Shown: positions 7,374 through 47,481 of the stretch, piece by piece
Position numbering within the stretch: position 1 is the stretch's first letter
Layout: each line of letters begins with the position of its first letter
IMG/VR virus record: IMGVR_UViG_3300033567_000007
Coordinates: 1-50,503 of that record
Direction: 5' to 3' (one strand)
DNA: 50,503 bases
Origin: a virus
Notes under the pieces: model-generated
What the model was told of the DNA's origin: nothing
Database searches by the model: none
The model's input: the letters and a program-made list of their open reading frames with translations, nothing else
Program-made: the position numbers and the translations under genes

Positions 7374-7405
7374 GCGGTCATTTTGTGTTGAAAGGAGTTG
7401 ATATA

Positions 7406-9445
7406 GTGGCAGACAAGGTAAGTATGTTTGCGCCGTTCTCGAAGGTCGAAACGACTTCAAATGGTGGAAGGGAAGTATGGGGATTTGCAACATTGGAACG
7501 CAAAGACAAGGTAGGAGAGATTGCAGACTTCGACCGTACGGTGAAGGCGTTTCAAAACTGGTCTGACGAAGTTTCCAAGCGTACAGGCGGCAAGTCGATG
7601 GGAAATGTCCGTGTAATGCACCAAGCGGTCACGGGTGGAAAAATGACGCACTGGGAACCGGGCGAAACGGAAATTGTCGACGAAAAAGGCAACAAACAGA
7701 CGGTTAAGGGAATTTGGACAGCCACATATGTTCCGCCGCACAAAACCGACGTCATCAAAGATATTGACGAAGGGATCTTGAGTGGCCTATCCATCGGCGG
7801 TGAATACGAAGAAAGATGGTGGGACGAAGCCCAAAAGGGATTCCGCTTCGCGCCAAAACTTGCCGAATACAGTTTTGTGGATAATCCATGTGTCGAAGGA
7901 GCGGACATTGTGAATGTCATTGCAAAGGCAGATGGCCCGTGGTCGAGAACCGACCGAAATCTGTCTAAAGCAACTAACGAAGAGCGCGAAAAACTCCACG
8001 CCGATGCCGAAGAACGTGCCAAGTCATCCGGAATCGCGGTCAAAGATGGCGGACACCTCACACCGCCGAAGGGCAAGCCGACCGACGAAGCTGAGTACGC
8101 CGATCCCACTAACTACGCTTATCCGATTGACTCCGCGCATATCAAAGCCGCTGTGGGTTACTTCAACCACCCTGATGAGCGCGAGAAGGGAGGGTATAGC
8201 GAATCCGAGTGGGCAATCATCGGCAAACGCATTGCAGAAGCCGCGAACAAGCTCATCGGTGACGGTCACGAGTACAAGGACGGCACCATCGAGACGTCCG
8301 ACGAGCGCAAGGCAGCAGACAAGGCCGCGTGGGGCGACTTGTGCAAGCGCGCTGGTGTCGGTGGTGAGTTGTCTTACGAGGACATCCGCCAACTGGTTAG
8401 TGCCGCAATCAACAAGGGCAATCCCATGTTGGACTTCTGGGTATGTGACACGTATCCGGAATATGTGATTGCAGACGACTGGGAAACGGGTAAGTGGTGG
8501 AAAGTGCCGTACACACTTGATGGAACTGATATCACGGTCGGAACACCAGAAGAAGTCACACAGGGCGATTGGAAGCCCGTAAAGGAGGCCAACAAATTGG
8601 AAGATACACCTGTTCAGAAGATGGATCCGGACGAGACAGTTACACAGAAGATTGCGGATCTCGAAGCCGCGATCGCTGCGGTTGAGGCGGCGCAAAAGAA
8701 GGACGTTCAGACAGGTGGGACAAGCCAGACTGATACAAACGTAGACGACAAGCTTCAAGCCGCCAAGGATGCTGTTGCGCAACTTAAAGCCGCACAGATG
8801 AAGGATAACTCAGCCGAGGATAAAGAAGACGCTGAAAAGTCTATCACGGCTCTTGAAATCCTCAAGACCATCAACGGACGTTTGGAGAAGCGTGGAACAG
8901 CCATCTCCGCTACGCGTCGCAAGCATCTGCAACATGCCGTGGACCACATTCACAAGGCCCTCGGTGAAGATGACAAGATTGGCGACAAGGAGCACATCGA
9001 CGGCGCGTCCACCACTCCCGACGGAGGCATGGATGCCGAGAAGTTTGTTGCTGCCGTGCTTGCAAAGTTGGACGGTACGACTTTGCAAAAGTCTGCACCT
9101 GATATTGGTGGTGCGCTGACCCAAGCGTTGGAGAACGCCGGGTTGGCAAAAGCTGATGTTGTGTCTACCTTATCCGAGCAACTGACCAAGGCAGTGGAGC
9201 AGATTGCAACACTGGAGGGTCTGGTGAAGGAGATAGGGGAACAGCCGCAGCCGAACGGTCCACACATGGGCGCGTATCCAGGACTCGGCGGAACTATGCC
9301 GTGGCAGGGCGTTGAAAAGTCCATCCTCCAAAGTACGATTGACCGCATCGCAGACCCCGTTGTTAAAGACCAAGTTGGTCAATCGATGGCTACGGAGCTC
9401 TTGTTAGCCCAGATGGGCGGAGCGCGTAGACCGACTGGCGCGTAA
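7406..9445 (+). CDS. Prohead protease/scaffold fusion (XkdF-like)
   Basis: GTG 7406 follows AAAGGAGTTG at eight bases; the upstream GTG 7385 lies before that site. About 679 residues. Residues 1-175 resemble XkdF/prohead protease: REVWGFATLERKD, VRVMHQA (possible catalytic His), GLSIGGEY (possible Ser) and the typical ending AEYSFVDNPCVEGADIV. Residues about 200-290 carry the ADPTNYAYPIDSAHIKAAVGYFNHP segment common beside phage proteases. The rest is acidic, helical and coiled-coil-like with Ala/Lys/Glu repeats, as expected of a scaffold. It likely shapes and then processes the prohead. Confidence 0.75.
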   Translation: MADKVSMFAPFSKVETTSNGGREVWGFATLERKDKVGEIADFDRTVKAFQNWSDEVSKRTGGKSMGNVRVMHQAVTGGKMTHWEPGETEIVDEKGNKQTVKGIWTATYVPPHKTDVIKDIDEGILSGLSIGGEYEERWWDEAQKGFRFAPKLAEYSFVDNPCVEGADIVNVIAKADGPWSRTDRNLSKATNEEREKLHADAEERAKSSGIAVKDGGHLTPPKGKPTDEAEYADPTNYAYPIDSAHIKAAVGYFNHPDEREKGGYSESEWAIIGKRIAEAANKLIGDGHEYKDGTIETSDERKAADKAAWGDLCKRAGVGGELSYEDIRQLVSAAINKGNPMLDFWVCDTYPEYVIADDWETGKWWKVPYTLDGTDITVGTPEEVTQGDWKPVKEANKLEDTPVQKMDPDETVTQKIADLEAAIAAVEAAQKKDVQTGGTSQTDTNVDDKLQAAKDAVAQLKAAQMKDNSAEDKEDAEKSITALEILKTINGRLEKRGTAISATRRKHLQHAVDHIHKALGEDDKIGDKEHIDGASTTPDGGMDAEKFVAAVLAKLDGTTLQKSAPDIGGALTQALENAGLAKADVVSTLSEQLTKAVEQIATLEGLVKEIGEQPQPNGPHMGAYPGLGGTMPWQGVEKSILQSTIDRIADPVVKDQVGQSMATELLLAQMGGARRPTGA

Positions 9446-20637: not shown

Positions 20638-21480
20638 ATGCGTCTGTCCGAAGCTTCTTCGTCTTATCTGTTACAGTTGGAGCAAGAACGTTACTCGCCA
20701 TGCACTGTCAAGGCTTACCGGATTCAACTCAACCTTCTTGCTCGTGATCTCGATGACATGGAAATCGACGTTGTCACGCTCCAACACCTGCGCGAACACT
20801 TATCGCATCACGGGCACCTAAAGCCATCCAGCATGGCGCACAAAGTTAAGAGCGTTCGAAATCTCTTCCGGTGGCTTGTTGAGGAAGAGTATTTGGTGCG
20901 TAATCCATCGCTCAAGTTAAAGGAACCTAAACAGGGTGAGCGTGTGCCAAAAGCACTGACGGTTGACGAGATTGAGGAATTGCGCGAAGCATGTCAGTCA
21001 CCACTCGAACACGCATTGCTTGAATTTTTCTTCGCGACAGGTTGTCGGCTATCTGAGGTGCAATCATTGAATCGCAACGCAATCGATTGGAATCGTAAGG
21101 CGGTCGTCGTGATGGGTAAAGGCTCGAAGGAACGAGAGGTGTACTTCGGTGCTAAGGCAGCGGTTTGGATGCGTAGATACCTCAACGTACGGAAAGATGC
21201 AGATATGGCGCTGTTTGTGACGGTAAACAAGCCGCATCGTATTGGCATTCACCGTATCCAATGCATTTTCAAACAGATCGCAGAACGATGTGGGCTCGCG
21301 GAGAAGGTTTCCCCACACAAGTTCAGACATTCGTTAGCCACGACATTGCTAAATCAGGGTGCGCCAATAGCGGCAGTGCAGAGTTTGCTTGGCCACTCCA
21401 AACCGGAAACGACGCAAGTGTACGCGAAATTAAGCGGCGCATCCAGACAGCAAGCCTACAATCGGTACTTCGTTCAGTAA
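20638..21480 (+). CDS. Xer-like tyrosine recombinase inside the tail region
   Basis: 280 residues, ATG eight bases after AGGAGG. N-terminal SAM-like core-binding domain (residues 1-95), then the catalytic domain with R137 (TGCRLSEV), K161/K164 (MGKGSKER), H227 and R230 (HKFRHSLAT), H253 (LLGHSKPETT) and nucleophile Y262. All active-site residues are present. It looks like XerC/XerD or IntS enzymes that cut and join DNA at short inverted sites. The phage has a separate serine integrase, so this enzyme probably does something else: tail-gene rearrangement, multimer resolution, or its own mobility. It is followed by a strong terminator. Confidence 0.88.
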   Translation: MRLSEASSSYLLQLEQERYSPCTVKAYRIQLNLLARDLDDMEIDVVTLQHLREHLSHHGHLKPSSMAHKVKSVRNLFRWLVEEEYLVRNPSLKLKEPKQGERVPKALTVDEIEELREACQSPLEHALLEFFFATGCRLSEVQSLNRNAIDWNRKAVVVMGKGSKEREVYFGAKAAVWMRRYLNVRKDADMALFVTVNKPHRIGIHRIQCIFKQIAERCGLAEKVSPHKFRHSLATTLLNQGAPIAAVQSLLGHSKPETTQVYAKLSGASRQQAYNRYFVQ

Positions 21481-23754: not shown

Positions 23755-23776
23755 CATGTCCATAGGAGGTGAGATT

Positions 23777-24292
23777 ATGTCCGGCGTCACTTGCAGGCCC
23801 GGAGATTTACTGTTCTACTTCGATGCTTTGGGCCTCGAACGCCTTATACAGCTCGGAGAGGACTTGGAGAAACACTCTGATGGACCGTGGCCGTATCACT
23901 GTGCGATTGCGCTCAACTCTACCGAGAAGCTCGAGGCTGACTTCTGGGACACCGCCGTCAACCCGATTACCGATGGGCGCCCTTATGTCGTCTGCCGGCC
24001 GCCGTATCCCGACGCCGTAAAGCTTGCTCGAGCGCTCCAATGGGGTCGTGGTCGTGTTGGTCGACTTTACGGCTGGGTCGGCATCACCGACCAGGGGCTA
24101 AGGGACCTGTCGGGTGGTCGTCTACACATGCCGCGCTGGTTTATTGAGTGGGTGGACAAGCTGTGGCCGTACTGCTCGACGCTGGTAGAGTCCATCGTAT
24201 CCCGCGCCGGGGTCCATGACATCCCGGAGTGGCCGCCTCCGTCTCCCGCGGATTGTTGGCTGGAGTTGCGAAGCTATCAACTACACGAATGA
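23777..24292 (+). CDS. Permuted NlpC/P60 (YiiX-like) cysteine hydrolase
   Basis: ATG 23777 after GGAGGTGA. 171 residues. GDLLFYFDALGLERLIQ, then H41 in PYHCAIAL, E54 in KLEADF, and C133 in WPYCSTLVES: the H...E...C order of circularly permuted NlpC/P60 enzymes (YiiX/LRAT-like). Family members cleave peptide or acyl bonds, including peptidoglycan peptides. First gene after the tail terminator and before the XhlA-like gene, so a lysis or cell-wall role is plausible. No signal peptide is seen. It could also act inside the host. Confidence 0.65.
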   Translation: MSGVTCRPGDLLFYFDALGLERLIQLGEDLEKHSDGPWPYHCAIALNSTEKLEADFWDTAVNPITDGRPYVVCRPPYPDAVKLARALQWGRGRVGRLYGWVGITDQGLRDLSGGRLHMPRWFIEWVDKLWPYCSTLVESIVSRAGVHDIPEWPPPSPADCWLELRSYQLHE

Positions 24293-24303
24293 GGGGTGAT
24301 CCG

Positions 24304-24561
24304 GTGGGAGAGTGGTATAGCGATAAGGACATTTTTGAGATGATCCAAGGGCTTAAGGCAGACTTGTCGGAGACACGCATCACGATCAAACGGTACAACG
24401 GATTGTGGGAAAAGTTTGAGGGCATGGACATGCGCCTAAACAATATCGAACAACGCAAAATTGGTCGGATATCGGCAAACAAGTCTTTCCGCGAATGGGG
24501 AGGATGGCTGTTTGGCGGTTGCAGTATCGTGATTGCGGGCATTGCGCTATTTCATAAATGA
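24304..24561 (+). CDS. XhlA-like membrane protein
   Basis: GTG 24304 behind GAGGGGTGAT. 85 residues: an amphipathic coiled coil (IQGLKADLSETRITIK ... MRLNNIEQRK) and one C-terminal membrane segment (WLFGGCSIVIAGIALFHK). This is the shape of XhlA proteins, which help the holin in PBSX-type lysis cassettes. It lies within the lysis cassette, consistent with the role. Confidence 0.65.
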   Translation: MGEWYSDKDIFEMIQGLKADLSETRITIKRYNGLWEKFEGMDMRLNNIEQRKIGRISANKSFREWGGWLFGGCSIVIAGIALFHK

Positions 24562-24571
24562 GGTGATTGGT

Positions 24572-25075
24572 ATGATCGTTCCAGCACACGAACTAACACT
24601 CCACGTCGCAGTTCCTGAATGGGTGCCAGGTCACGAAACACGTGGCCACGACATGCCGGATTATCAGCGCAACCGCCAGACCGTCATCGATGACGGTCAT
24701 TATTTTTGTTGGCGGTGTGCAATCGCTAAACGTGCGCCGAAAACAGAATTACAGTGTCATCACATATCAGAATGGGCCGAATGGAATGATGCCGACCACG
24801 ACAAGGCGTTAGCTGTTGCCAATTTTTTAGACCCGTATGGTTATGCGAAGCAGATGGGTGACGCTCCAATAACGAATCCAAACGACATCAGACTGCTTTG
24901 GTTCTTGTGCCAAGAATGCCACACGGGGACCCCGAAAGACCCTGCAACAGTGACTGCCGAACCTACCGATTATATTAGCGGAGGCATCCACTATTGCACG
25001 CTTGTGGATTTTTTAGCTGACGCTATTCGTGTACGCAAGGTGATGGAGCAACTAACACAAGAGGCGAAATCCTGA
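24572..25075 (+). CDS. HNH-type zinc endonuclease-like protein
   Basis: ATG 24572, 167 residues, after GAGGTGATTGG. CWRCAIAKR, then QCHHISEWAEWND, then LCQECH: two CxxC pairs and a His-His core, the layout of HNH nucleases. The N-terminal 40 residues look like a separate basic strand segment. It may be a free-standing homing nuclease lodged between lysis genes. Its stop overlaps the next start. Confidence 0.62.
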   Translation: MIVPAHELTLHVAVPEWVPGHETRGHDMPDYQRNRQTVIDDGHYFCWRCAIAKRAPKTELQCHHISEWAEWNDADHDKALAVANFLDPYGYAKQMGDAPITNPNDIRLLWFLCQECHTGTPKDPATVTAEPTDYISGGIHYCTLVDFLADAIRVRKVMEQLTQEAKS

Positions 25076-25440
25076 TGGCCGCCAAAGTGCTCAAGCGGGT
25101 GAACGCGGACGGTACGCTGTATGGCTGGAGATTTTACTGCCCCGGGTGTGACGAGAACCACGTTGTGACAACCAAGTGGGGATTCAATGGAAGCCTTGAT
25201 AAACCTACTTTCACACCTTCAATACTCACGCGAGGCGGCCACTACATTCCGGGTCACACAGGTGATTGTTGGTGTACTTACAATGCCGCACATGTGGACG
25301 ATCCAAGCGGGTTTGTATGTTTCCAGTGTCATGTTTTCATCACTGACGGACGCATTCAGTTTTTGAACGATTGTTCACACGCATTGTCAGGGCAAACAGT
25401 CGACTTGCCCGACGTTATGGAGTACGGAGAGGTGATGTGA
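25075..25440 (+). CDS. DUF6527-like zinc protein
   Basis: 121 residues with start in the upstream TGATG overlap. YGWRFYCPGCDENHVV, FNGSLDKPTFTPSIL, CHVFITDGRIQFLNDCSHALSG (in part) and TVDLPD match the DUF6527 family of phage proteins; the two Cys clusters should hold zinc. The family function is unknown to me. It is widespread in phage genomes of Firmicutes. Confidence 0.75.
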   Translation: MAAKVLKRVNADGTLYGWRFYCPGCDENHVVTTKWGFNGSLDKPTFTPSILTRGGHYIPGHTGDCWCTYNAAHVDDPSGFVCFQCHVFITDGRIQFLNDCSHALSGQTVDLPDVMEYGEVM

Positions 25441-25770
25441 TTGACGGACTATCTCGTTTGCCGTGGATGCCAAAACACAGGTCGCAACACCTTCACCAAA
25501 GACGGATATTGCGGCTGTCCAAACGGAATTGCGTTGAAACTAAAAGGAGGAAGCACAATGAAACCATCAGTAGGAAGAATCGTCCATTATTTTAGTTACG
25601 GGACTCCAAACGGAGAATGCAAGAGTGAGGCCAGAGCCGCCGTCGTGACAGGTGTTGTTGACGCCACAACCGTTCATCTATGCGTATTGAATCCTACTGG
25701 CCAGTTTTTCAACCTGAACGTAAAGCAGGGTACTCAAGGTGGTCAGTGGGACTGGCCGGAGCGTGAGTGA
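25441..25770 (+). CDS. Zinc-knuckle extension in frame with a conserved phage protein (long form)
   Basis: TTG 25441, coupled to the previous stop and preceded by GAGAGGTGATG, gives 109 residues. The first 39 residues hold CRGCQNTG and GYCGCPNG, a CxxC...CxC knuckle like those of other small genes here. The frame then runs without a stop into the next, conserved part. A strong internal ribosome site and ATG sit at the join (see 25558-25770). Either the long fusion is made as well, or a stop between two genes has been lost. Confidence 0.5.
   Translation: MTDYLVCRGCQNTGRNTFTKDGYCGCPNGIALKLKGGSTMKPSVGRIVHYFSYGTPNGECKSEARAAVVTGVVDATTVHLCVLNPTGQFFNLNVKQGTQGGQWDWPERE
25558..25770 (+). CDS. Conserved small phage protein (internal start form)
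   Basis: ATG 25558 lies after AAAAGGAGG with ideal spacing. The 70-residue product (VGRIVHYFSYGTPNGECKSE, LCVLNPTGQFFNLNVKQG, GQWDWPERE) matches a frequent small phage protein that normally starts at this Met. Role unknown. Confidence 0.7.
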   Translation: MKPSVGRIVHYFSYGTPNGECKSEARAAVVTGVVDATTVHLCVLNPTGQFFNLNVKQGTQGGQWDWPERE

Positions 25771-25771
25771 C

Positions 25772-26533
25772 ATGACCTTATCCGGCATCGACGTCTCCAA
25801 CAACAATGGAGTCATCGACTGGCCAGCCGTCACCAAGGCTGGCCTTTCGTTTGCCTTCTGTAAATCGACGGAGGGAGCGACCTATCACGATCCGTCGTTT
25901 GCCCACAACTATGCCGGCGCACGCTCTGCTGGTCTCCTACGCGGTGCGTACAACTTCGCGCGACCTGCTACTTCGACGGCGGTGGACGAAGCGAATGCCT
26001 ATGTGTCCGTCGTGGTGGCTAACGGTGGTTTTGAACTACCGCCAGCGCTCGACATGGAGGATGCCGGGGGACTGTCAAACGCTGACTTGGTTGCCTGGTG
26101 CCGAACATGGGCTGCAACTGTTAAGCGCCACGACACACGCAGACCACTGCTCTATGCGAGCCCGTCGTTTATCCGTGAGCATGGGTTAATTGCGTTGGCC
26201 GACACGTTTGACCTGTGGTTGGCTGACTATTCCGCGACACCCGATCTCGGTGGCTGGCCGCGCGCCTATGTATTCTGGCAGACGTCGCAGACTGGCTCGG
26301 TAGACGGCATTAGCGGCGATGTCGATATGGACGTGTTCAACGGCTCGCTTGCAGACTTACGAGCACTCGCGGGAGGTGAGGATGTGGTACAGACGCAGGT
26401 TGTCGTCAATGGCAAAGAGTACCCGGCTGTCGTGGTCAACGGGCAAACGTATATCTTGTGGACGGCACTCGAAGGATTGCCTGGCTTCAAAAAATCTCTA
26501 ATGAAAGAAGAGTGGCACTTTGAGACCAAGTAA
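25772..26533 (+). CDS. GH25 lysozyme (endolysin)
   Basis: ATG 25772 (GTG 25763 is also in frame). 253 residues. The catalytic domain (residues 1-200) shows GIDVSNNNGVIDW, FAFCKSTEGATYHDPSF, PALDMEDAGG and FDLWLADY, the GH25 pattern with its Asp and Glu active-site residues. It cuts the glycan chain of the cell wall. The C-terminal 50 residues (VVVNGKEYPAVVVNGQTYIL) look like a copper-amine-oxidase-N/stalk-type domain that may bind the wall. It overlaps the next gene by 14 bases. Confidence 0.9.
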   Translation: MTLSGIDVSNNNGVIDWPAVTKAGLSFAFCKSTEGATYHDPSFAHNYAGARSAGLLRGAYNFARPATSTAVDEANAYVSVVVANGGFELPPALDMEDAGGLSNADLVAWCRTWAATVKRHDTRRPLLYASPSFIREHGLIALADTFDLWLADYSATPDLGGWPRAYVFWQTSQTGSVDGISGDVDMDVFNGSLADLRALAGGEDVVQTQVVVNGKEYPAVVVNGQTYILWTALEGLPGFKKSLMKEEWHFETK

Positions 26534-27560
26534 TTATCGAACCATGCGAATTCCTGCCAACCACGCGGACACTCAACGCAAGCGTACTATGGCCGCTGTC
26601 GCGCTCTCGCCCGTACACAATCAAGGCGCTGACCTATCCCAGTGGTGTGGCGCTGTCTTTAATCAGTTACAGGAGGGCAGCTGCACGGCATGCGAGACAC
26701 GCGATCACCTCCTGTGGAAGCAGAATAGATATGGATATGTGCCCGTAACCGACCCGAACGTGCAGATCCTCTATTACTTTGGCCGCAAGGTGTTCGGAGA
26801 TCTCAACAGCGACAATGGTGCAACGATTCATGATGCCCATTATGCCGCGATCAACAACGGCGTGTGGCCTGCATCGGTGGAAGCGTATAACAAATCAACG
26901 TTGTTCACTGTCCCGTCCGGGGATCCGACATTCAATGCGAGCGAACAGCAAGACTTACAGCCAACCACGGCCAACATCCGTGCATCGTTAGACAGTGGTG
27001 TTCCAGTGGGTGTTGCGGTCGAAGTGGATCGGACATTGTTTAATCCGACGCTTTATGACGGCATGCACATTGCCGATGTCACGACACAAGTACTTGGTGA
27101 AGGTCACGCGCTGTTTATTCCTACTTACAAGACCGATCCGGCGCATGGGTATCTTTATAAGTACCAGAATTCATGGGGCGAAGGTTACGGGGACAAAGGC
27201 TTTGCGTGGTTTACCGAAGCATACCTGCAAAAGTATCTCTATGAGCTCGGAACACTCGACATCCCACAGCCTAGACGATCTGTTCCGACGCCAGATCCGT
27301 TGATTAAGATATCAGCGACATTTGCCTATCCACTGGTCAAGGTGGGCACGAACAACCAGCTCACGCTCACCGGCATGCCGGGGGCTCATTTTGACGTGAG
27401 TGTATCGAGTCCTGCGTTGCCCCGCCCGCTGGGCTTACAGGGCACGTTCGACGAGAGTGGATTTGCAAAATGGACGGTATCATGGCCGGCAGCCGGGGAC
27501 TACACCTACGCCATCACGTCGGACGGCCAGACTGTCATGAGAGCAGCGGTATGGCAGTAA
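26520..27560 (+). CDS. Papain-family (C1A) cysteine protease with Ig-like tail
   Basis: TTG 26520, overlapping the lysozyme gene; ATG 26544 is an alternative. 346 residues. Residues 30-245 are a bacterial-type C1A peptidase: NQLQEGSCTACE with catalytic C55, GEGHALFIPTYK with H196, and YQNSWGEGYGDKGF with N217. The oxyanion-hole Gln is at or near residue 51. All catalytic residues are intact. The prodomain is missing or very short. Residues 255-346 form a beta sandwich (LVKVGTNNQLTLTGMPG ... GDYTYAITSDG). There is no signal peptide; release would rely on the holin. It could cut a host or cell-wall protein. Confidence 0.82.
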   Translation: MRPSNYRTMRIPANHADTQRKRTMAAVALSPVHNQGADLSQWCGAVFNQLQEGSCTACETRDHLLWKQNRYGYVPVTDPNVQILYYFGRKVFGDLNSDNGATIHDAHYAAINNGVWPASVEAYNKSTLFTVPSGDPTFNASEQQDLQPTTANIRASLDSGVPVGVAVEVDRTLFNPTLYDGMHIADVTTQVLGEGHALFIPTYKTDPAHGYLYKYQNSWGEGYGDKGFAWFTEAYLQKYLYELGTLDIPQPRRSVPTPDPLIKISATFAYPLVKVGTNNQLTLTGMPGAHFDVSVSSPALPRPLGLQGTFDESGFAKWTVSWPAAGDYTYAITSDGQTVMRAAVWQ

Positions 27561-27579
27561 AATATAAGGAGTGATAGCT

Positions 27580-28140
27580 ATGTGGACAGGTACAGATTGG
27601 ACGGTTGTTGGAACGCAAGTTCTTGGTGCTGTCGGGATAGTGAGTGCAGTTGTCGCATATCTCAAGAAACGCTTTCCGAAGGAAGCACAGGCTGTCGAGA
27701 ATGCTGTGGCGCATGATGTCCCGGCAATAGCGCTCCAGGGCGCGAAAGGGTTAGCATCCATCTTTGTGAACTTGGCTAAGATGCCCATGTTTGCTGGACT
27801 GGCCGCGAAAGGCGAGTTGCAGGCTCATCACATCGAGTCCCATCTTATGGACACTCATCTAGCGTTGGCAGCCGCGAATGCGGTCGGCGTCTTTAACTCA
27901 GCGCTCGATGTCAAAGTGGACAACCTGAGCCCGACGCAGAAGACAGATATCGTCGAGTTTGTTAAGAGTGAGTTGCAGAAGGTTGGCATCACGAAGACGA
28001 ACGCCGAGATTGTACAAGCTTTGCAGGATGCGCAGAAGACGTTTGACAACATCACGCAGACGATTGTGCCGGCTGTCCAGCAACATGACGCCGCTGTGCA
28101 AGCATGGTCGCAACCTGCCGTGACTACCGAATCTGTGTAG
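27580..28140 (+). CDS. Holin-like membrane protein (LL-H type)
   Basis: ATG 27580 behind TAAGGAGTGAT. 186 residues: one N-terminal membrane segment (VVGTQVLGAVGIVSAVVAYL), then helical, Ala-rich and soluble (VENAVAHDVPAIAL, LQDAQKTFDNITQTIV). The single-membrane-segment plus helical C-terminal pattern resembles LL-H-type holins. Last gene of the lysis cassette. It could instead be a minor lysis regulator. Confidence 0.55.
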   Translation: MWTGTDWTVVGTQVLGAVGIVSAVVAYLKKRFPKEAQAVENAVAHDVPAIALQGAKGLASIFVNLAKMPMFAGLAAKGELQAHHIESHLMDTHLALAAANAVGVFNSALDVKVDNLSPTQKTDIVEFVKSELQKVGITKTNAEIVQALQDAQKTFDNITQTIVPAVQQHDAAVQAWSQPAVTTESV

Positions 28141-32570: not shown

Positions 32571-34127
32571 TCACACCAACGGATACAGCGTCAAACTGAA
32601 GTCATCCACCTGTTGCCATGGTTCTTTCGTGTACACAGCCTTCTCAAGCACGGTCTTGAGGAGGTTATTTTTTGTCTCTGCACTATCTAGCGTGCGATAA
32701 ACTTCCAAAACATGCCGCACGTGCGGGATCACGTCTAATCGCGCCTGCGCTGTGCGTTCGGACTGTGTGCGGTCCTCTTCTATCTGCCCCCGTTGCTCTC
32801 GAAGTTCGCGGAGTTTGGCATGTAATTTTTGGTTGCGGTCGAGGTACGTCGCGTCATCGTAAATTCGCCGTTCCAATAAATCGTGCAACTCGTCTTGCTG
32901 ACGAACGACCTGTTGAATTTCGGTGTCAATCTGCCGGAGTACCCGCGCATGATCCAGCGATGTCTCACGCTTTGAATTCATCGCGGCGGCAACTTCTTCG
33001 ACGGAGACCTCGTATTCTCTGAGCCAAATAGAAAGCGCCTCTAAAACCTTGCCTTCCACGATGGATAGCCGCGTGCTCTTGTTGTTGCAGCTGGGATAAT
33101 GACACATGATGTGGGGCGGCTGCTTCCCGTATGGGCGGCGCATCATCTTCTTGCCGCATTTGCCGCATACGATTATCCCCGCTAACGGATTGGAGACTTG
33201 ATTTTTCTTCGGCACCGGCGCATTCGATCTGCGCGCGCGAATCTCGACACTGCGTTGCCAAGTCTCTGCATCGACAAGCGGATCATGCTGTCCTTTGGCG
33301 CGGATGTGTTCTGACTCTGGCCGTTTATGTGTGACACCCTTGCGCTTATCCCGCTTCGCTTTACGCCAAACAATGTATCCTGCATAGACCTCGTTGCGCA
33401 ATAGTGGCATCACCATGTCGCCGTTCCACACCTTACCTTTAGGTGACTTGATACCGATTTGGTTCAGGTATTCCGCTACGCGCTTGCCGCCCAGGTGTTT
33501 ATTAACGTACAAGTCAAAAATCAACCGAATGGTATCGGCGTGCTCGTTTGGCGCGAGAACAAGGTCCCGGTTGACGTCGTATCCAAACGGCGGTGTCGTG
33601 CCGATATACTTACCTTCCATAACTGACGCGATCCGGCCGCGTTGCATGCGTTTCGTGATCATTTTCAATTCTCTACGCGCGAAGAACGTTTTGAACTCTG
33701 TCCACTCTTCGTCCATCTCGTCGGTGAGGTCATACACTTTGTCCGGCGTCAGGATGAGTGTCGAACTATCTTTGAAAGCCCTTAGAATAGCACCCTGGTC
33801 GGCCATGTCACCGCGTCCAAGCCTGTCAAGGTCCATCACCCATACACCAGTTACGTGACCCTCGTCTACGTCCTCTAGGAGCCTCTGCATTGCGGGGCGT
33901 TCGGATATGTACTCACCGGACACCACTTCTTCGAGGACTTGAGTAACATTGTGCTGGTATTTGTGGGCAAGATTCAGGAGCGTGCGCCGATGCCTGGCTA
34001 AAGTCTCGATTTCATCGGATCGTCCTTCGCGGCGTGCGCGTTCCTCCGCGTCACGATCCTCTCGGGACTTGCGGACATATAGATAGACATCGTTGAGATC
34101 CGTCGGAAAGTCCGAGTGGAGTGCCAT
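32571..34127 (-). CDS. int: Large serine integrase
   Basis: ATG 34127 (minus strand), nine bases after AAGGAGG; the frame extends upstream to 34175. 518 residues. Resolvase domain with catalytic S21 in YVRKSREDRD, then VWVMDLDRLGRGD and RRELKMITKRMQRGR. The recombinase domain (TPPFGYDVNRDLV, KGKVWNGDMVMPLLRNEVYAG in parts) is followed by a zinc ribbon (CGKCGKKMMRRPYGK, CHYPSC) and a coiled coil. Integrates the phage into the host chromosome, presumably at an attB matching the attP beside it. Leftward, transcribed away from the repressor. Confidence 0.93.
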   Translation of the reverse strand: MALHSDFPTDLNDVYLYVRKSREDRDAEERARREGRSDEIETLARHRRTLLNLAHKYQHNVTQVLEEVVSGEYISERPAMQRLLEDVDEGHVTGVWVMDLDRLGRGDMADQGAILRAFKDSSTLILTPDKVYDLTDEMDEEWTEFKTFFARRELKMITKRMQRGRIASVMEGKYIGTTPPFGYDVNRDLVLAPNEHADTIRLIFDLYVNKHLGGKRVAEYLNQIGIKSPKGKVWNGDMVMPLLRNEVYAGYIVWRKAKRDKRKGVTHKRPESEHIRAKGQHDPLVDAETWQRSVEIRARRSNAPVPKKNQVSNPLAGIIVCGKCGKKMMRRPYGKQPPHIMCHYPSCNNKSTRLSIVEGKVLEALSIWLREYEVSVEEVAAAMNSKRETSLDHARVLRQIDTEIQQVVRQQDELHDLLERRIYDDATYLDRNQKLHAKLRELREQRGQIEEDRTQSERTAQARLDVIPHVRHVLEVYRTLDSAETKNNLLKTVLEKAVYTKEPWQQVDDFSLTLYPLV

Positions 34128-34156
34128 ATGTGATGTTCCTCCTTGTCGGTATGATG

Positions 34157-34190
34157 GGTATATTATAGCGCTCACATAATGACCGGAGAT
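34157..34190 (-). promoter_or_regulatory. Integrase promoter candidate
   Basis: A perfect -10 box TATAAT (plus strand ATTATA, 34162-34167) lies about 35 bases upstream of the int ATG. A convincing -35 box is not seen, so it may need an activator. Confidence 0.45.
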
Positions 34191-44964: not shown

Positions 44965-47481
44965 ATGAGAAGAAGCGACGTACAACTCAACTTATTCAAC
45001 GCTTCCAGGCGCGAGATCATCGTCGACAACTTTGCCGGAGGCGGCGGTGCGAGTACCGGCATTGAGTTGGCAACTGGTCGCTCGGTCGACATCGCTATCA
45101 ACCACGATCCGGCTGCCATCGCGATGCATACGGTCAACCACCCGACGACGGAGCACTACTGCGAGTCAATATGGGATGTGGACCCGCGCAAAGCTACAGA
45201 CGGCCGTCTGGTGGCGCTGTGCTGGTTGTCGCCAGATTGCTTCCCAGCCGGAACGATGATTCTCACTCGAAAAGGATATGAACCGATTGAAGACGTTCAA
45301 GTGGGCGACGAAGTTTTGACTCACAAGCTGAGATGGAGAAAGGTGACTGAAGTGTCCAATACCCGTAAGCCATTGTTGTCGATAAAAGGCCACGGGCATC
45401 CGGGGTTAGCTGTCACCTCTGAACATCCATTCTATGCCCGCTTGCGTCGCAATGTATGGCGAACCAATCCGCGAGGGTATGAAAGAACACTTGAATCTGC
45501 GGAATGGACGCCCGCGTCGATGCTGGACAAGGGTTGGTATTGGGCCACGCCGACACGGTTTCCGGGTTGTAATATTCCAGAAGTTTCTGGGCGTGGAATG
45601 ACCATCACGAGAGAACTTATGTGGCTCGTTGGACGTTACTTGGGGGATGGATGGACGAGGTTGACAGATACCCGAGCGGAATTGGTCATCACTTGTGGGA
45701 TGCATGAGATTGACAACCTCAGAAAAACGCTTGGAATTTGGTCATCACAAGGCCGCGCCCATTTAGCAGATGAGTTAAATTGGCAAGAACGAAAAACGGG
45801 CACAGCGTACCAGTTTACAACTAATCATCGGGGTCTTGTCACTTGGTTGAGAGAAAATTTCTCACATCGAGCTGAGTCGAAGCGCATTCCGGCATGGTCT
45901 CTCGGGATGCCGAAAGGGTACAAACAGGTGCTCCTTTCGGGTTATCTTTCGGCAGATGGTTGGCAGGAAGGGCACTTCTCAGAATGCCGCACAGTTTCCA
46001 AAGCGCTTGCTTTTGGAATCAAGGCGCTGCTCAACTCCCTGGGGAAGACCGTCATAGTTCACCTCACGAAAAATTCGACCGTAATAGAAGGAAGACATGT
46101 CAATGCTCGGATGATATACATGCTTCGCTGGCGTGAATCGGTAGATGACGACCACAGACAAACGTTTCAAGAAGATGGACTTGAGTGGTGCCCGATACGG
46201 TCCCAAGAAGATCTTTGTGTAGAATCGGATGTTTTCAACATCGGCGTCGAAGAAGATGAAAGCTACATTGTTGAGGGGATTGTGGTCCATAACTGCAAGC
46301 ATTTTAGTAAGGCGAAGGGCGGCAAGCCAGTAGAAAAGAGTATTCGGGGGCTGGCGTGGGTTGCAGTTCGATGGGCGGCAACGGTTAAACCTCGCGTAAT
46401 CATGCTCGAGAATGTCGAGGAGTTCAAGACGTGGGGTCCTTTGACCGAGGATGGGTACCCGAACCTGAAGCAAAAGGGACGCACGTTCAACTCGTTCGTC
46501 AACGCACTTAAGCGTCACGGGTATCAAGTTGAGTGGCGAGAGATGAGGGCGTGTGACTACGGTGCCCCGACGATTCGCAAAAGGTTCTTCCTCGTTGCGA
46601 GATGTGACGGTCAACCTATCGTGTGGCCAGAGCCCACACATGGCGCGCCCGATAGTCCAACAGTCAAGCATGGCCGACTGAAACCGTGGCGCACAGCTGC
46701 TGAAATTATCGACTGGAGTCTACTGTGCCCATCAATTTTTGAACGGAAGAAACCGTTGGCTGAGAATACGATGCGACGGATTGCTCGAGGGATAGTGAAG
46801 TTCGTCATCAATGACCCACAACCATTCATCGTCAAAGTGAATCACCATAGTGAACAGTTTCGTGGACAGAAGTTGGACGAGCCATTGCAGACCATCACGG
46901 CGAAGAACGGCTGGGGCATCGTTGCTCCGTTCCTTGCTCAGTACCACACGGAGACGGCGCACAGCGAGGTACGAGGTCAAGCGATGACGGACCCTATCCT
47001 GACGTTGGATACGTCGAACCGATATGGACTGGTCGCCGCGTTCTTAACCAAGATGTATGGGACTAACATAGGGCAACGCATTGGCGAACCATTGCACACA
47101 GTGACAGCCGGCGGAAATAAATTTGGAGAGGTCAGAGCCTTCTTGACTCAGTACAACGGCTCGAGCATTGGCCAAGACTTGCGAGGTCCACTGAACACAA
47201 TAAGCACCCATGACCGCTTTGGGCTGGTTGCAGTACACGGTCAAGACTACGCCATCGTGGACATCGGGATGCGGATGTTGGAGCCACATGAGCTGTTCGC
47301 GGCACAGGGATTCTCGGCCGACTACATCATCGACCGAGACGTGAATGGGAAAGCGTACCCGAAGTCGGCGCAGGTTGCACGATGTGGGAACGCTGTACCA
47401 CCGCCGTTCGCAGAGCACCTGGTGAGGGCGAATCTGCCGGAGATGTGTGGGAAGAAGAAAGCTGCTGTTGGAGCCGATTGA
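44965..47481 (+). CDS. Cytosine-5 DNA methyltransferase precursor with intein
   Basis: 838 residues, of which 352 form an intein (45238-46293). Extein: motif I DNFAGGGGASTGIE (residues 21-34), the catalytic motif WLSPD-C-KHFSKAKGG interrupted before Cys, MLENVEEF, then APTIRKRFFLVARCD. A target region holds three similar repeats (FLAQYHT, FLTKMYG, FLTQYNG followed by PI/PL-T segments), and the end is RCGNAVPPPFAEHLV. Methylates cytosine in phage DNA, probably against restriction. No restriction gene is nearby. Confidence 0.93.
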   Translation: MRRSDVQLNLFNASRREIIVDNFAGGGGASTGIELATGRSVDIAINHDPAAIAMHTVNHPTTEHYCESIWDVDPRKATDGRLVALCWLSPDCFPAGTMILTRKGYEPIEDVQVGDEVLTHKLRWRKVTEVSNTRKPLLSIKGHGHPGLAVTSEHPFYARLRRNVWRTNPRGYERTLESAEWTPASMLDKGWYWATPTRFPGCNIPEVSGRGMTITRELMWLVGRYLGDGWTRLTDTRAELVITCGMHEIDNLRKTLGIWSSQGRAHLADELNWQERKTGTAYQFTTNHRGLVTWLRENFSHRAESKRIPAWSLGMPKGYKQVLLSGYLSADGWQEGHFSECRTVSKALAFGIKALLNSLGKTVIVHLTKNSTVIEGRHVNARMIYMLRWRESVDDDHRQTFQEDGLEWCPIRSQEDLCVESDVFNIGVEEDESYIVEGIVVHNCKHFSKAKGGKPVEKSIRGLAWVAVRWAATVKPRVIMLENVEEFKTWGPLTEDGYPNLKQKGRTFNSFVNALKRHGYQVEWREMRACDYGAPTIRKRFFLVARCDGQPIVWPEPTHGAPDSPTVKHGRLKPWRTAAEIIDWSLLCPSIFERKKPLAENTMRRIARGIVKFVINDPQPFIVKVNHHSEQFRGQKLDEPLQTITAKNGWGIVAPFLAQYHTETAHSEVRGQAMTDPILTLDTSNRYGLVAAFLTKMYGTNIGQRIGEPLHTVTAGGNKFGEVRAFLTQYNGSSIGQDLRGPLNTISTHDRFGLVAVHGQDYAIVDIGMRMLEPHELFAAQGFSADYIIDRDVNGKAYPKSAQVARCGNAVPPPFAEHLVRANLPEMCGKKKAAVGAD
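45238..46293 (+). mobile_element. Intein with LAGLIDADG homing endonuclease
   Basis: Begins with Cys (CFPAGTMILT), has DVQVGDEVLTH, block B VTSEHPFY, two LAGLIDADG-like motifs (LVGRYLGDGW and LSGYLSADGW), block F-like VFNIGVEEDESY and ends VEGIVVHN with Cys following. All splice residues (Cys1, TxxH, C-terminal HN, +1 Cys) look active. Insertion is exactly before the methyltransferase catalytic Cys. Confidence 0.93.

What the first reader, a model, noticed from the sequence alone, without database searches (positions are those of the whole stretch)
26520..27560. Complete C1A (papain) protease in a phage lysis cassette
C55, H196, N217 and the Gln region are all present, followed by a beta-sandwich tail. 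Papain-family enzymes are uncommon in phages; most wall enzymes are other folds. Next to a GH25 lysozyme it could attack S-layer or wall proteins, or act on host factors.
Basis: partly seen in the sequence, partly recalled or inferred. Interest (0 to 1): 0.7.

Follow-up and report, generated by a model that had tools for sequence, protein, structure and literature searches.

The report
Papain-family protease in phage lysis module
A bacterial virus, probably of an Alicyclobacillus-like bacterium, carries an intact papain-type protein-cutting enzyme directly after its wall-cutting lysozyme, and in related viruses the two activities are one fused protein, so it is most likely part of the cell-bursting machinery, although what it cuts is unknown.

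Summary
Confirmed: window 26520-27560 encodes a complete C1A protease (Q49, C55, H196, N217 from the TTG start) with a ~90-residue strand-rich tail. A profile of viral C1A proteins built without it finds it at E=2.6e-35; the modelled catalytic domain matches xylellain (3OIS, Z 27.2). The nearest homologues (42-50% identical) are the N-terminal domain of 703-739-residue lysins in bacterial contigs: C1A, β-rich segment, glycoside hydrolase (Rv2525c-like), peptidoglycan-binding. Alicyclobacillus phage MMB025 has the same architecture (a peptidase-plus-muramidase lysin, PMC13141910) in a syntenic module. The window holds a split form: a GH25 muramidase, ending in the domain that also ends two of those lysins, overlaps the C1A gene by 14 bases; a one-TM holin-like gene follows. 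C1A genes adjoin endolysins independently in actinophages. Phage C1A genes are uncommon but not exceptional (54 of 50,697 records; over 280 and 420 IMG/VR loci in two capped scans). The substrate (S-layer or wall protein, peptidoglycan peptide, phage protein) is untested. New variant of a known kind.

The parts
26520..27560 (+). C1A (papain-family) protease gene, TTG start, 346 aa; overlaps the end of the GH25 gene by 14 bases
   Evidence: TTG start from N-terminal alignment with L360-L362
26616..27269 (+). catalytic domain; Q49 codon 26664-26666, C55 26682-26684, H196 27105-27107, N217 27168-27170
   Evidence: invariant columns, fold match to xylellain
27279..27557 (+). strand-rich C-terminal tail after a Pro-rich linker, in the place where fused homologues have an Ig-like segment; sequence homology to those segments not shown
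   Evidence: profile E=3.8, i.e. no match
25772..26533 (+). GH25 muramidase (endolysin); ORF listed from GTG 25739, likely start ATG 25772
   Evidence: Pfam E=1.9e-40, PHROG endolysin E=7e-44
26384..26530 (+). C-terminal domain of the GH25 protein shared with the C-termini of the MMB025 and L360 C1A-lysins and the KKP_3916 GH25 protein
   Evidence: shuffle z 12.2 and 11.1; profile E=1.5e-12, only hit among 68 window ORFs
27571..28140 (+). holin-like protein with one N-terminal TM segment; homologues directly follow the fused C1A-lysin in MMB025 and L360
   Evidence: E 4e-6 and 1e-4
23756..24292 (+). homologue of MMB025 CDS0091, of a KKP_3916 gene and of L360 2-460; the corresponding gene in L113 is a weak Peptidase_C92 (permuted papain-like amidase) match
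   Evidence: E 7e-20, 9e-20, 1e-16; L113 gene Pfam C92 E=6e-5, below cut-off
24229..24561 (+). small protein with a C-terminal TM segment, XhlA/holin-like layout (weak)
   Evidence: E=0.004 to L360 414-710
24533..25075 (+). HNH endonuclease-like gene, also present in the MMB025, L362, L270 and L271 lysis regions
   Evidence: E 7e-20, 1e-14, 2e-17, 2e-18

Best explanation
The gene is the protease half of a two-gene lysin. In related Alicyclobacillus-type phages one polypeptide carries C1A protease, Ig-like segment, muramidase and peptidoglycan-binding parts; here the muramidase (GH25 with the shared C-terminal domain) and the protease (with its own tail) are separate, overlapping, probably translationally coupled genes followed by a holin-like gene. 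Shown: intact triad, fold family, gene order, fusion in relatives. Inferred: late co-expression; leaderless export through the holin lesion; GH25 cuts the glycan while the protease cuts protein that holds or covers the wall (wall-anchored or S-layer protein), so that the envelope opens fully. The protein-substrate step is the least certain.
For: Intact Q/C/H/N and profile match; fold match to xylellain Z 27.2. Nearest homologues are the N-terminus of 703-739 aa proteins with Rv2525c glycoside hydrolase and PG_binding_1 domains. MMB025 CDS0095 has the same architecture and its paper calls it a multi-domain lysin with peptidase and muramidase (PMC13141910). Module synteny with MMB025: window 23098, 23756, 24533, C1A, 27571 and the 32571 recombinase all have counterparts. 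The GH25 tail is shared with MMB025 and L360 C-termini. In L113 a C1A protein carries a C-terminal domain related to that of the CTP1L endolysin structures (5A6S, 4CU2, E 6e-5), near-identical to the tail of the adjacent glycoside hydrolase; in L270/L271 the C1A gene directly precedes amidase-type endolysins. Independent association in actinophages: Cafasso, GMA2, Lilbeanie, Sixama, Mufasa8 and GH25 directly after C1A in several IMG/VR contigs. Tree: Bacillota lysis C1As and actinophage C1As are separate groups.
Against: The window's GH25 is a different hydrolase family from the fused Rv2525c domain. Tail homology to the Ig-like segments is not shown (E 3.8, z 1.7). Most phage C1A genes are not near a recognisable endolysin: 3 of 80 in the A2 set and 13 of 80 in the A6 set with a small seed panel. 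No activity, expression or localisation data. Papain-family enzymes cut L-peptides, so action on peptidoglycan stems or on an S-layer is unproven; host and its S-layer are inferred.
Confidence: 0.6

Rival explanations
1. It is a peptidoglycan endopeptidase: the C1A domain cuts stem peptides or cross-links and so works as a second muralytic domain of the lysin.
For: Fusion to muramidase and PG_binding_1 domains; endolysins commonly pair a glycosidase with a peptidase; authors of MMB025 propose peptidoglycan degradation for the two domains.
Against: From established knowledge, C1A enzymes are endopeptidases on L-peptides; stem peptides hold D-residues and no C1A muralytic enzyme was found in the papers searched.
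Confidence: 0.25
2. It processes phage proteins: it matures the lysin, holin or a tail protein rather than attacking the host wall.
For: Protease sits in the same module as holin-like and tail genes; in fused lysins it could cut the Pro-rich linkers (sequence); a separate head protease already exists at 7385-9445, so head maturation is not needed.
Against: Fused lysins keep the protease attached in the gene in several lineages; a second stand-alone C1A occurs in G067/G148; no conserved cleavage site was looked for.
Confidence: 0.1
3. It is a cargo gene acting on host cytoplasmic factors or defence, placed in the lysis region by chance.
For: Many large phages carry C1A genes outside lysis regions; some plasmids carry C1 peptidases beside ImmA/IrrE genes.
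Against: Synteny and fusion with wall-acting domains in Bacillota phages and clustering of endolysin-like ORFs within 2 kb of C1A, none beyond 4 kb.
Confidence: 0.05

Closest known systems
Alicyclobacillus phage MMB025 CDS0095 (PV686781.1, 'endolysin', PMC13141910)
   Same: C1A protease linked with a muramidase; shared C-terminal domain; syntenic neighbours including the holin-like gene and recombinase
   Different: One 753-aa protein with Rv2525c-type hydrolase and PG_binding_1; in the window two genes, GH25 and no PG_binding_1; C1A domains only about 24% identical
Fused C1A lysins in class-mates of Tumebacillus (G255, G067, G148; loci L360-L362)
   Same: Closest homologues, 42-50% identical by tblastn, same C1A domain
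Gordonia/Arthrobacter phage 'cysteine protease' genes (Cafasso gp30, GMA2, Lilbeanie, Sixama, Mufasa8)
   Same: Stand-alone C1A gene between endolysin and holin
   Different: Separate deep clade in the tree (100/100); no tail; no detectable similarity in the reverse phage search at E 0.01
Xylellain (PDB 3OIS)
   Same: Best sequence and fold match in PDB
   Different: Cellular bacterial protease, 22% identical over 231 residues; no lysis setting
Mycobacteriophage LysA N5 (C39-like, 'papain family') domain
   Same: Papain-like cysteine peptidase domain in an endolysin (PMC3314691)
   Different: C39-like, not C1A; compared from the paper only

Membership tests
Peptidase family C1A (papain) | Cys, His, Asn triad with oxyanion Gln, in that order and spacing | tested here: met
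   Q41/C47/H188/N209 (ATG numbering) invariant in 57 rows
Peptidase family C1A (papain) | Significant profile match | tested here: met
   Pfam PF00112 21.0 bits vs 20.7; viral C1A HMM E=2.6e-35
Peptidase family C1A (papain) | Papain fold | tested here: met
   AF2 model, xylellain Z 27.2, rmsd 2.4 over 231 residues; papains Z 22-24
Peptidase family C1A (papain) | Proteolytic activity blocked by E-64 | not testable with these tools
   needs purified enzyme
Phage endolysin (modular, wall-acting) | Gene lies with a peptidoglycan hydrolase and a holin-like gene | tested here: met
   GH25 upstream with 14-base overlap, one-TM holin-like gene downstream
Phage endolysin (modular, wall-acting) | The protein itself has a wall-binding domain | tested here: inconclusive
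   Tail has no Pfam or convincing PDB match; binding-type domains occur on the GH25 partner and on fused relatives
Phage endolysin (modular, wall-acting) | Cuts host peptidoglycan | not testable with these tools
   needs assay; muralytic activity of C1A domains not found in papers searched
Phage endolysin (modular, wall-acting) | Homologue fused to a peptidoglycan hydrolase | tested here: met
   P0001, L360, L361 Pfam architecture

The most novel reading that the evidence does not exclude
Phages of Gram-positive bacteria repeatedly recruited papain-family proteases as a separate protein-removing lysis function: after the muramidase cuts glycan, the protease removes S-layer or wall-bound protein, a job comparable in role (not in kind) to LysB or spanins in hosts with an outer layer.
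Probability: 0.3. Interest if true: 0.75.

Novelty: new variant of a known kind. Interest (0 to 1): 0.45.

Why it matters
Endolysin lists contain peptidases of several kinds but papain-family (C1A) enzymes are rarely discussed in lysis. Fusion in one lineage, gene pairing in others and a separate association in actinophages point to a recurring lysis part whose substrate is untested. If it removes protein from the outer wall, it is a distinct step of lysis in S-layered hosts and a possible lysin component for juice-spoilage Alicyclobacillus.

Tried and rejected
Single-sequence structure prediction failed for the catalytic part (mean pLDDT 35). Close-relative scans with the window protein found none in phages, viral contigs or genome contigs, since their patterns are exact 8-mers; alignment-based scans and the genome search found them. 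41 terminase-related viral records had no C1A, many being fragments. Tail: no Pfam match; PDB hits weak (E 0.09); Ig-like homology by shuffle test z 1.7 and by profile E 3.8, so not claimed. A chance truncation of a fused lysin was considered: no remnant of the Rv2525c or PG-binding domain in the window, so rejected. L005 (Enterococcus record) is a host PepC-like gene, not a phage C1A. The first neighbour count missed C1A genes in GC-rich contigs because of the ORF caller and was replaced. VIA rows cover residues 14-242 only, so absent matches for the tail say nothing.

Full report
OBSERVATION. The ORF at 26520-27560 is present as described. Pfam Peptidase_C1 matches at 21.0 bits against a 20.7 cut-off; the closest PDB sequence is xylellain, 3OIS, E 2.8e-6. 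A profile of 56 viral C1A proteins that excludes the window scores it at E=2.6e-35 and no other window ORF passes. Gln, Cys, His and Asn are invariant in the alignment. The AF2 model from 57 sequences has a good catalytic domain whose best match is xylellain (Foldseek E 1.3e-13; VIA Z 27.2, rmsd 2.4, 231 residues). The tail is strand-rich at low confidence.

SETTING. The record is a 50.5-kb IMG/VR virus contig, linear, with terminase, portal, tape-measure and tail genes, repressor, RecT-like and DnaD-like genes and two recombinases. The terminase is nearest to those in Tumebacillus (72%) and Aneurinibacillus (70%) contigs, so the host is probably a Bacilli member of the Alicyclobacillus/Tumebacillus neighbourhood; this is inference. 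The lysis region runs from 23756 to 28140: a C92-neighbour gene, a small TM protein, an HNH gene, GH25, C1A, and a one-TM holin-like protein. GH25 and C1A overlap by 14 bases.

RELATIVES. A search of 398 genomes of the class of Tumebacillus found three homologues at 42-50% identity, each the N-terminal part of a 703-739 aa protein with an Rv2525c-like glycoside hydrolase and, C-terminal to it, PG_binding_1. Alicyclobacillus phage MMB025 CDS0095 has the same order; [quoted passage not shown] Six window genes have MMB025 counterparts in the same region. The C-terminus of the window GH25 protein is homologous to the C-termini of MMB025 CDS0095 and L360 and to the KKP_3916 GH25 tail. Thus the window holds the same parts split over two genes, with another muramidase family. 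No remnant of the Rv2525c or PG-binding domain remains in the window.

OTHER BACILLOTA-TYPE PHAGE CONTIGS. In L113 the C1A gene is followed by an Rv2525c-type hydrolase; both proteins end in near-identical domains, related to the C-terminal domain of the CTP1L endolysin structures. In L270 and L271 close C1A relatives precede amidase-type endolysins. The C1A stays while the hydrolase changes.

ACTINOPHAGES. With the Cafasso protein, 54 phage records match. In Cafasso, GMA2, Lilbeanie, Sixama and Mufasa8 it lies in the lysis cassette; in Indlovu, BillNye, XacN1 and FLC9 it does not. Of 80 IMG/VR loci of this type at least 13 have an endolysin-like ORF nearby; the hits cluster close to C1A and several GH25 genes start within a few bases of its end. 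In the tree the actinophage group and the Bacillota-phage lysis group are distinct, which suggests at least two recruitments.

FREQUENCY. Most C1A loci of the xylellain-like set are not near an endolysin (3 of 80), so a phage C1A gene is not by itself a lysis gene; the context here is what supports it.

MECHANISM. Shown: intact catalytic residues, fold family, gene order, fusion and domain sharing with wall-acting enzymes. Inferred: late expression, release through the holin lesion (no TM segment or signal-like peak), and cleavage of protein in or on the wall. Peptidoglycan endopeptidase is the main rival. Nothing here tests the substrate.

KNOWN STATUS. Papain-like domains in endolysins are known (C39-like N5 domain, PMC3314691); BetterKatz's lysis cassette lists a cysteine protease-like protein (PMC4982276); MMB025's fused lysin is published. 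I found no paper with tested C1A activity in lysis in the library searched, which lacks most subscription journals. The window adds a split, GH25-paired form and the wider comparison. Novelty: new variant of a known kind.

Noticed in passing
window 20638-21480 and 32571-34175: Two site-specific recombinases in one phage: a tyrosine integrase between tail genes and lysis module, and a large serine recombinase near the repressor. Which one integrates is unclear; inverted repeats around the first were weak.
   Followed up: partly
window 44965-47481: Cytosine-5 DNA methyltransferase ORF with intein-type splice signals (TIGR01443 E 2e-6).
   Followed up: no
L361 4535-5278 and L362 11590-12348: Two genomes carry a second, stand-alone C1A gene a few kb from the fused C1A-lysin, grouping with MMB025/L113/L270 in the tree.
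   Followed up: partly
L266-L268 (Tumebacillus and relatives): A chromosomal C1A protease gene flanked by genes that look like DNA polymerase III delta subunit and a spore protease; apparently not a prophage gene.
   Followed up: no
L097, L098: Plasmid C1 peptidase genes directly after ImmA/IrrE metallopeptidase genes in Sulfitobacter and Sphingobium, a conserved neighbourhood of unknown use.
   Followed up: no
L100 2434-3628: Priestia megaterium plasmid C1 peptidase followed by an I42 (chagasin-type) protease inhibitor gene.
   Followed up: no
L119 4738-6435: Viral-contig C1A protease fused to collagen-like repeats.
   Followed up: no
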